Assembly (NCBI GenBank): GCA_013407085.1 | Contig: JACCGJ010019054.1 | Location: 1-64,000 of the forward strand | Origin: Atriophallophorus winterbourni | Lineage: Eukaryota; Platyhelminthes; Trematoda; Plagiorchiida; Microphallidae | Length of the DNA stretch: 64,000 nt | Direction: 5' to 3' | Shown: in pieces, positions 20,657 to 63,186 of the stretch | How positions within the stretch are numbered: the stretch's first letter is position 1 | Layout: each line of letters opens with the position of its first letter | Notes under the pieces: model-generated | Databases searched by the model: none | What the model was told of the DNA's origin: nothing | The model's input: the letters and a program-made list of their open reading frames with translations, nothing else | Made by a program: the position numbers and the translations under genes

Positions 20657-20717
20657 ATGATTGCAAACGCTACTCGTTCAATTCTGATACTTTTGCTTTT
20701 GAACATCATTTCGATTG
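20657..20717 (+). CDS. MEG exon 1, signal peptide
   Basis: The ATG opens MIANATRSILILLLLNIISI plus one base. A short polar N-terminus and a 13-residue hydrophobic core form a classic secretion signal, with cleavage likely near SIG-A at the exon 1/2 junction. The donor is GTGAGT. This start is chosen because the TATA box lies close upstream. Confidence 0.85.

Positions 20718-63186: not shown

What the first reader, a model, noticed from the sequence alone, without database searches (positions are those of the whole stretch)
20657..63186. A giant micro-exon gene: 35 or more symmetric micro-exons over at least 42.5 kb
Every internal exon I can defend has a length divisible by 3 and sits in phase 1-1 between AG and GT; the concatenation reads as one open frame from a signal peptide with no stop. 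MEGs are known from schistosomes, but those I am aware of have around twenty micro-exons or fewer. About 2% of the locus is coding, so gene finders would miss it: no computed open frame corresponds to it.
Basis: partly seen in the sequence, partly recalled or inferred. Interest (0 to 1): 0.95.

Follow-up and report, generated by a model that had tools for sequence, protein, structure and literature searches.

The report
Fluke micro-exon gene, smaller than claimed
This flatworm DNA holds what looks like a real gene cut into about twenty tiny exons that together spell a secreted protein, a kind of gene already known from blood flukes; the claimed second half, which would have made it a giant, could not be told from chance.

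Summary
From an ATG with a signal peptide at 20657 to about 41981 (21.3 kb, + strand) there is a non-random chain of micro-exons. With an untrained textbook splice-site model, 20.6-42.1 kb holds 25 stop-free blocks of length 3n in phase 1, against a mean of 6.6 in 200 simulations (maximum 15); at a stricter cut-off, 14 against 1.0. The excess implies about 18-22 real symmetric exons, plus exon 1 and perhaps one to three asymmetric ones.

Beyond 44.7 kb the same count equals chance: 15 against 16.4, then 5 against 7.8; sites trained on the first half give only a mild excess. So "35 or more over 42.5 kb" is not established. The last three claimed exons lie in a tandem array of 1.3-kb units running off the window.

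The host is a flatworm, most probably a trematode. The predicted core meets a published working definition of a micro-exon gene. SmVAL6 of Schistosoma mansoni (about 60 kb, 38 exons) already matches the claimed scale. No significant relative of the spliced protein was found. A new, long member of a known kind.

The parts
20610..20619 (+). possible TATA box (GGTATAAATG), about 38-47 nt before the ATG
   Evidence: sequence printed; function inferred
20657..20717 (+). exon 1: ATG and signal peptide (last residue completed by exon 2), donor GTGAGT, ends in phase 1
   Evidence: sequence; signal peptide judged by eye (basic residue, hydrophobic core, S-I-G/A)
20794..20814 (+). micro-exon, 21 nt, phase 1-1
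   Evidence: textbook site sum 5.4: strict tier
21373..21396 (+). candidate micro-exon, 24 nt, phase 1-1, poor acceptor
   Evidence: site sum -0.1; hand-read
21480..21503 (+). micro-exon, 24 nt, phase 1-1; open in phase 1 only
   Evidence: site sum 6.0: strict tier
22969..23019 (+). micro-exon, 51 nt, phase 1-1
   Evidence: site sum 2.4: middle tier
23684..23713 (+). micro-exon, 30 nt, phase 1-1; open in phase 1 only
   Evidence: site sum 5.6: strict tier
24803..24823 (+). micro-exon, 21 nt, phase 1-1
   Evidence: site sum 4.8: strict tier
24920..27000 (.). intronic transposon debris: LINE-like fragment and, on the minus strand, an LTR-element integrase; masked in the tests
   Evidence: rve domain in 26021-26566
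27349..27366 (+). candidate micro-exon, 18 nt, phase 1-1
   Evidence: site sum 1.3
28044..28061 (+). micro-exon, 18 nt, phase 1-1
   Evidence: site sum 2.1: middle tier
29086..29115 (+). micro-exon, 30 nt, phase 1-1
   Evidence: site sum 4.3: strict tier
29792..29809 (+). candidate micro-exon, 18 nt, phase 1-1
   Evidence: site sum 1.0
29955..29978 (+). candidate micro-exon, 24 nt, phase 1-1
   Evidence: site sum 0.9
30694..30720 (+). micro-exon, 27 nt, phase 1-1
   Evidence: site sum 4.3: strict tier
31383..31397 (+). candidate micro-exon, 15 nt, phase 1-1
   Evidence: site sum 1.9
31520..31537 (+). micro-exon, 18 nt, phase 1-1
   Evidence: site sum 6.3: strict tier
32314..32349 (+). micro-exon, 36 nt, phase 1-1; open in phase 1 only
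   Evidence: site sum 4.7: strict tier
33007..33036 (+). micro-exon, 30 nt, phase 1-1
   Evidence: site sum 2.8: middle tier
34215..34229 (+). micro-exon, 15 nt, phase 1-1
   Evidence: site sum 3.0: middle tier
34326..34352 (+). micro-exon, 27 nt, phase 1-1
   Evidence: site sum 2.0: middle tier
34860..34889 (+). micro-exon, 30 nt, phase 1-1
   Evidence: site sum 6.3: strict tier
35139..35147 (+). micro-exon, 9 nt, phase 1-1
   Evidence: site sum 5.5: strict tier
35758..35781 (+). micro-exon, 24 nt, phase 1-1
   Evidence: site sum 2.4: middle tier
37813..37824 (+). micro-exon, 12 nt, phase 1-1
   Evidence: site sum 4.8: strict tier
38394..38423 (+). micro-exon, 30 nt, phase 1-1; open in phase 1 only
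   Evidence: site sum 4.3: strict tier
38967..38981 (+). micro-exon, 15 nt, phase 1-1
   Evidence: site sum 4.7: strict tier
39586..39628 (+). candidate asymmetric exon, 43 nt, phase 1-2, which would let the 29-nt exon at 40763 read in phase 2
   Evidence: site sum -0.9; chosen by the trained all-phase model, not by the untrained one
39836..39850 (+). candidate micro-exon, 15 nt, phase 2-2
   Evidence: site sum 1.6
40763..40791 (+). asymmetric exon, 29 nt, strong sites; phase 2-1 or 1-0
   Evidence: site sum 5.4
41961..41981 (+). last micro-exon of the supported core, 21 nt, phase 1-1 (left unspliced it would soon read into a TAA stop)
   Evidence: site sum 4.8: strict tier; sequence
42150..44720 (+). 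transposon-like stretch (reverse-transcriptase-like frames, Penelope-like by recollection); masked in the tests
   Evidence: no Pfam hit for 42494-43423
46083..46106 (+). unproven extension exon, 24 nt
   Evidence: site sum 0.3; region at chance
47137..47154 (+). unproven extension exon, 18 nt
   Evidence: site sum 0.5; among the 9 blocks of the mild excess
47978..47998 (+). likelier extension exon, 21 nt; open in phase 1 only
   Evidence: site sum 4.2; region at chance
49521..49553 (+). unproven extension exon, 33 nt
   Evidence: site sum -1.1
51725..51733 (+). unproven extension exon, 9 nt
   Evidence: site sum 2.9
52317..52337 (+). unproven extension exon, 21 nt
   Evidence: site sum 1.9
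53806..53829 (+). unproven extension exon with two possible donors (12 or 24 nt)
   Evidence: site sums 3.6 and 1.2
56442..56477 (+). unproven extension exon: 36 nt (weak donor), 32 nt (better donor, asymmetric), or read on to a stop at 56536
58640..58719 (+). candidate terminal exon: acceptor score 3.6, phase 1, stop TGA at 58717-58719
   Evidence: not tested against chance
59138..64000 (.). tandem array of about 1.3-kb units (A1 59138-60458, B1 60459-61776, A2 61777-63066, B2 63067 to beyond the window end)
60555..60578 (+). exon-like 24-mer of unit B1, poor acceptor; a better acceptor inside it would give 12 nt (60567-60578)
   Evidence: site sums -0.1 and 3.7
61556..61579 (+). exon-like 24-mer of unit B1; the A1 and A2 counterparts lack a GT donor
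   Evidence: site sum -0.5
63163..63186 (+). exon-like 24-mer of unit B2 (the finding's last exon), poor acceptor; a better acceptor inside it would give 6 nt (63181-63186)
   Evidence: site sum -0.1

Best explanation
This is the 5' part, perhaps most, of a flatworm (most probably trematode) micro-exon gene on the + strand. It begins at 20657 and runs at least to about 41981. A first exon encodes a signal peptide. It is followed by roughly 20 micro-exons of 9-51 nt, nearly all of length 3n in phase 1-1, separated by introns of which at least one carries transposon debris. Because each such exon is in-frame on both sides, any subset can be skipped without a frameshift, so one gene could make many variants of one secreted protein, up to about 245 aa from the core catalogue. 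Shown: the non-random chain of 3n phase-1 blocks, its agreement with the phase set by exon 1, and the flatworm host. Inferred: that it is transcribed and spliced, that skipping occurs, and that the protein is secreted and meets the host (as for known MEG proteins). The 3' end is unknown. Exons beyond about 42 kb may exist but are not demonstrated.
For:: 25 blocks against 6.6 expected at cut-off 2 and 14 against 1.0 at cut-off 4, 0 of 200 simulations reaching either; 25 against a mean of 7.1 (maximum 10) in 15 other length/phase/strand classes; 18 of 18 3n blocks open in phase 1, against 10 and 9 in phases 0 and 2, with a site model not trained on the window; untrained chain model 48.5 against 25.1 +- 3.5 (40 simulations) and 22.7-22.9 on the minus strand; 17 exons with posterior above 0.5 (14 of them in the core) against a mean of 1.4, maximum 5. 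(at penalty 7): sites learned from 20.6-30 kb only, scored on 30-64 kb: 29.2 for 3n phase 1, against 6.0-9.9 for lengths 3n+1 and 3n+2 and 5.2-11.7 on the minus strand; 60 simulations 9.8 +- 4.3, maximum 26.3; held-out blocks are richer in G+C than their flanks by 0.103 (n = 30), against 0.023 in 288 decoys (p = 2.6e-4; decoy classes overlap); the animals named among the 120 listed relatives of the LINE frame at 6829-8091 are flatworms, nearly all flukes.
Against: No RNA and no comparative evidence could be had. The spliced peptide has no significant relative: Pfam best E 0.22, PDB best E 0.48, protein collection none at E <= 1 among 1585 candidates; MEG proteins diverge fast and that search reaches close relatives only. 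With sites trained on my own seeds, held-out splice-only blocks show no clear excess of 3n lengths (53/44/51 at cut-off 6; minus strand 43/35/40). 3n blocks open in phases 0 or 2 are also above control (17 each against 7.1; 21.6 and 21.1), as expected if real 3n exons are often open in more than one phase, but it weakens the phase argument. No terminal exon was identified.
Confidence: 0.85

Rival explanations
1. The finding as stated: one gene with 35 or more micro-exons running from 20657 to at least 63186, with its 3' part in the tandem array.
For: A 40-exon catalogue ending at 63186 reads through without a stop. Mild excess in 44.7-59.1 kb with first-half-trained sites, 9 against 3.8 +- 1.7, maximum 7. 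Exon-like 24-mers in the array differ between unit types more than their flanks. SmVAL6 shows that such sizes exist.
Against: Counts beyond 44.7 kb equal chance with the textbook model: 133 of 200 simulations reach the observed number in 44.7-59.1 kb and 183 of 200 in 59.1-64 kb at cut-off 0. Over 44.7-64 kb the trained sites give 10 against 5.9 +- 2.5, maximum 10. The three array exons have acceptor scores of -2.9 to -3.4. A possible terminal exon lies before the array (58640-58719).
Confidence: 0.22
2. Chance: AG..GT blocks picked by eye from AT-rich sequence, no gene.
For: At the loosest cut-off many such blocks arise by chance: 24.5 expected in 20.6-42.1 kb and 24.2 in 44.7-64 kb.
Against: The core exceeds all 200 simulations at cut-offs 0-4 and all 15 control classes at cut-offs 0-5, and agrees with the phase set by exon 1.
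Confidence: 0.04
3. A composite gene of the SmVAL6 type: a conventional domain plus a long micro-exon stretch, with the domain outside the window.
For: SmVAL6 has 38 exons over about 60 kb, many small exons in the same phase and 35 isoforms among 67 clones (PMC2270263, passages).
Against: Here the micro-exons follow directly on a signal-peptide exon; SmVAL6 lacks a signal peptide and has its SCP/TAPS domain before the small exons. No significant Pfam domain in the spliced peptide.
Confidence: 0.08

Closest known systems
Schistosome micro-exon genes (MEG families)
   Same: Signal peptide in the 5' exon, then runs of very short exons mostly divisible by three, long introns, transposons in or near the genes (passages)
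   Different: S. mansoni MEGs are described with 10-20 short exons and a longest protein of 189 residues among 87 aligned; here about 20 or more exons and up to about 245 aa in the core catalogue; no sequence relative found; 3' exon not found
SmVAL6 (S. mansoni venom allergen-like 6)
   Same: Very long gene (about 60 kb), 38 exons, 17 under 20 bp, many small exons in the same phase, heavy alternative splicing
   Different: SmVAL6 carries an SCP/TAPS domain and no signal peptide; here a signal peptide and no significant Pfam domain
Tapeworm MEGs (Hymenolepis, Echinococcus)
   Same: Same working definition by exon length and run
Bicycle genes of aphids
   Same: Fast-evolving putative effector genes (abstract opening in the listing); many small exons is recalled, not from a call
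   Different: Insects; the host here is a flatworm

Membership tests
Micro-exon gene (working definition of PMC7653826) | micro-exons under 70 nt and divisible by three | tested here: met
   on predicted exons: 14 strict-tier exons of 9-36 nt in the core, 1.0 expected
Micro-exon gene (working definition of PMC7653826) | at least seven exons, at least half of them micro-exons | tested here: met
   on predicted exons: about 18-22 real symmetric micro-exons implied by the excess in 20.6-42.1 kb
[quoted passage not shown]
   on predicted exons: no frame of 120 aa or more lies between the strict-tier exons except transposon-like or unassigned ones in the introns; consecutiveness in a transcript is inferred
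Schistosome MEG | signal peptide in the 5' exon | tested here: met
   exon 1, judged by eye; no signal-peptide program was run
Schistosome MEG | long 3' flanking exon | tested here: inconclusive
   12 candidate stretches, none tested against chance
Schistosome MEG | transcribed, with variants by exon skipping | not testable with these tools
   no RNA data
Schistosome MEG | sequence membership in a numbered MEG family | tested here: inconclusive
   no significant relative; the search reaches only close relatives and MEG sequences were not compared one by one
SmVAL6 type | SCP/TAPS domain | tested here: not met
   no such Pfam hit in the spliced peptide; a domain outside the window cannot be excluded

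The most novel reading that the evidence does not exclude
The gene does run into the tandem array. The array is then a place where micro-exons are being born and lost now: 1.3-kb intron-plus-exon units are duplicated in tandem, some copies lack a donor, and others diverge faster in the 24-nt exon than in the intron around it. The full gene would have more than 35 micro-exons and could exceed SmVAL6 if more units lie beyond the window.
Probability: 0.2. Interest if true: 0.6.

Novelty: new member of a known kind. Interest (0 to 1): 0.36.

Why it matters
It shows that a micro-exon gene can be recognised in raw genomic sequence, with an error rate that can be measured, where open-frame searches see only transposons. 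It also shows where such reading overreaches: the reading that finds about 20 exons in the first 21 kb goes on finding as many more in sequence that cannot be told from chance. If the tandem array belongs to the gene, it would be a direct view of how micro-exons multiply.

Tried and rejected
Self-trained exon models (and the four-round runs) were not used for the verdict: after training they also report many exons on the minus strand (posterior above 0.5: 23 on minus against 38 on plus), because they learn repeats such as the array. One search omitted the AG/GT terms by mistake and scored almost nothing; one search replaced it. Phase 1-1 was not forced; in its untrained runs phase 1-1 made up 0.66-0.75 of the expected exons with the asymmetry penalty and 0.32-0.41 without it, against 0.26-0.41 and 0.12-0.15 on the minus strand. 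One of the 11 hand-read seeds was set one base off (29956 instead of 29955); it was corrected from then on and one search was not rerun. One search used 10 of the 11 seeds. In one search the margin depends on the penalty: at penalty 6 the score is 53.7 against 26.7 +- 8.0, maximum 51.2.

A relative in Pfam, the PDB or the protein collection: none significant. Of two transposon frames used to place the host, the Ty3/gypsy frame is not informative: among 120 listed of 924 relatives the named ones are arthropods, a mollusc, cnidarians, an echinoderm and a bin labelled Lactococcus, with no flatworm. The LINE frame names flatworms (120 listed of 343), besides 3 rows labelled Streptococcus dysgalactiae, which I take for contamination. 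The window's own assembly could not be searched.

Papers: PMC10526429 (first of five parts of the text, and passages), PMC5825161, PMC4671649, PMC7653826, PMC4350168 and PMC2270263 (passages); the others only as search listings with abstract openings. DeMarco et al. 2010 is not held, so the original MEG paper was not read.

Full report
WHAT WAS CLAIMED. Its own exon list was not given to me beyond the two ends; the catalogue tested here is mine.

THE START. At 20657 an ATG opens a 61-nt coding stretch that reads as a signal peptide and ends at a GTGAGT donor in phase 1. A GGTATAAATG motif lies about 38-47 nt before the ATG. Upstream lie transposons and a 95-nt tandem repeat.

IS THE CHAIN MORE THAN CHANCE? 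I first read exons by eye in 20.6-30 kb and used them to train site models. On 30-64 kb, held out from training, the 3n phase-1 score at penalty 7 is 29.2; 60 simulations give 9.8 +- 4.3 with a maximum of 26.3, the 3n+1 and 3n+2 classes give 6.0-9.9, and 3n in phases 0 and 2 gives 21.6 and 21.1 (one seed was one base off there). But these tests rest on my own seeds, and the plain count of lengths modulo 3 on held-out blocks is not convincing (53/44/51 at cut-off 6). I therefore repeated the test with a splice-site model written down from textbook metazoan frequencies (recalled, not from a call) and not trained on the window. With it, 18 of 32 blocks in 20.6-64 kb are 3n and all 18 are open in phase 1, against 10 and 9 in the other phases; on the minus strand 8 of 19 are 3n and 2 of these are open in phase 1; upstream (1-20.5 kb, + strand) 8 of 30 are 3n and 4 are open in phase 1 (lowest of three cut-offs). 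An untrained chain model gives 48.5, against 25.1 +- 3.5 in 40 simulations and 22.7-22.9 on the minus strand. It names 17 exons with posterior above 0.5 (14 in the core, 3 beyond 44.7 kb), against a mean of 1.4 and a maximum of 5 in simulations.

WHERE IT HOLDS AND WHERE IT STOPS. Split by region, the signal is in the first half. In 20.6-42.1 kb the counts at cut-offs 0, 1, 2, 3 and 4 are 46, 36, 25, 14 and 14, against simulated means of 24.5, 13.7, 6.6, 2.8 and 1.0, and none of 200 simulations reaches any of them. The excess is 21.5, 22.3 and 18.4 at cut-offs 0 to 2, which I take as an estimate of 18-22 real symmetric exons. In 44.7-59.1 kb the counts are 15, 8, 5, 4 and 1 against 16.4, 9.4, 4.6, 2.0 and 0.7; in 59.1-64 kb they are 5, 1, 1, 1 and 0 against 7.8, 4.4, 2.1, 0.8 and 0.3. 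The 15 other length/phase/strand classes agree: at cut-off 2, 25 against 7.1 in the first half and 6 against 5.4 in the second. With sites learned from the first half, 44.7-59.1 kb shows 9 blocks against 3.8 +- 1.7 (maximum 7), coding scores slightly better than decoys (p = 0.04) and no G+C contrast (p = 0.29); at a higher cut-off 6 against 1.7 +- 1.1 (maximum 4; p = 0.23 and 0.08). Over 44.7-64 kb it is 10 against 5.9 +- 2.5 (maximum 10) and 6 against 2.7 +- 1.1 (maximum 5). So a few exons may lie beyond 44.7 kb, but neither their number nor their identity is established. 42.15-44.72 kb was masked as transposon-like and not tested.

THE CATALOGUE. My catalogue has 40 exons to 63186, 37 of 39 internal ones of length 3n, median 24 nt, 994 nt and 331 aa in all; 29 of them, 736 nt and 245 aa, lie in the core to 41981. 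In the core 14 symmetric exons have textbook site sums of 4 or more. The 29-nt exon at 40763 does too (5.4) and is not symmetric; a trained model fits it with a weak 43-nt exon before it, the untrained one does not. Catalogue exons have 40.8% G+C against 28.8% in flanks; on held-out blocks the contrast is 0.103 against 0.023 in decoys. Five core blocks of middle score are not in the catalogue (27081, 33212, 36030, 39318, 39709), as the chance rate leads one to expect, and seven core exons of the catalogue score below 2.

THE TANDEM ARRAY. From 59138 to the window's end there are four units of about 1.3 kb, the last cut off, in an A-B-A-B order. Three exon-like 24-mers sit in the B units. Their acceptors are poor (-2.9 to -3.4), in two of them a better acceptor sits inside, and the A-unit counterparts of the third lack a GT donor. 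Between units the 24-mers differ more than their surroundings in three of four comparisons: 6/24 against 70/796 (p = 0.018), 11/24 against 139/1020 (p = 1.8e-4) and 9/24 against 197/1053 (p = 0.026); in the fourth, A1 and A2 are identical over 29 nt (0/29 against 190/1244). Some windows outside the 24-mers reach similar values and the tests are uncorrected. This is a lead, not a proof.

HOST. A LINE frame at 6829-8091 (minus) has 343 relatives, 120 listed. Those that name an animal name flatworms, with Trichobilharzia regenti at 64%, Schistosoma mattheei at 62% and Dicrocoelium at 58% among the first, and two rows of the cestode Sparganum; three rows are labelled Streptococcus. The best row (73%) is unnamed. 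The gypsy frame gave no flatworm name among its 120 listed. I conclude a flatworm, most probably a trematode; the species is open.

WHAT IT DOES. Shown: a chain of in-frame, skippable small exons behind a signal peptide. Known for such genes: MEG exons are mostly symmetric, the proteins are secreted or exposed, and variants arise by alternative splicing (PMC5825161, PMC4671649 and PMC4350168, passages). Inferred: this gene makes a set of related secreted proteins, which would help the worm vary what it shows to its host. The catalogue protein without its signal peptide is acidic (pI 5.2) and has no significant match to a known domain.

COMPARISON. As predicted, it meets a published working definition of a MEG on exon length, number and run. 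It is longer than the S. mansoni MEGs as reviewed (10-20 exons, longest protein 189 residues). It does not break new ground in scale: SmVAL6 has 38 exons over about 60 kb, and tandemly repeated exons in S. mansoni transcripts appear as a 1988 title in the reference list of PMC10526429. MEG loci of S. mansoni are reported as enriched in transposons, and one MEG-3 exon duplication as linked to one, which fits the transposons seen in this locus.

VERDICT. A predicted micro-exon gene of about 20 exons in 21 kb, well above chance and of a known kind, with an unproven extension.

Noticed in passing
window 59138-64000: Tandem array of about 1.3-kb units in A-B-A-B order, running off the window; in three of four unit comparisons the exon-like 24-mers differ more than the flanks.
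   Followed up: partly
window 1156-4391 and 11679-15825: Two Ty3/gypsy-type LTR retrotransposons upstream of the gene (protease, reverse transcriptase and integrase domains in the first; RNase H and integrase zinc-binding domains in the piece of the second that was scanned).
   Followed up: partly
window 6829-8091 (-): LINE reverse transcriptase with close relatives in flukes and also in three records labelled Streptococcus dysgalactiae, probably contamination of those assemblies.
   Followed up: partly
window 54561-56040: A 152-nt direct repeat (93% identical) brackets minus-strand frames of 270 and 144 aa without Pfam hits: possibly a short LTR element inside the locus.
   Followed up: no
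window 19572-20199: A 95-nt tandem repeat, 6.6 copies, ending about 460 nt before the gene's ATG.
   Followed up: no
window 20213-20347 and 33607-33745: Sequence just upstream of the gene recurs at 71% identity within the locus.
   Followed up: no
window 46664-46956: A TCTA microsatellite of 73 copies inside the locus.
   Followed up: no
window 58640-58719: Candidate terminal exon with a good acceptor and a stop in phase 1, before the tandem array; if real, the array would lie outside the gene.
   Followed up: partly
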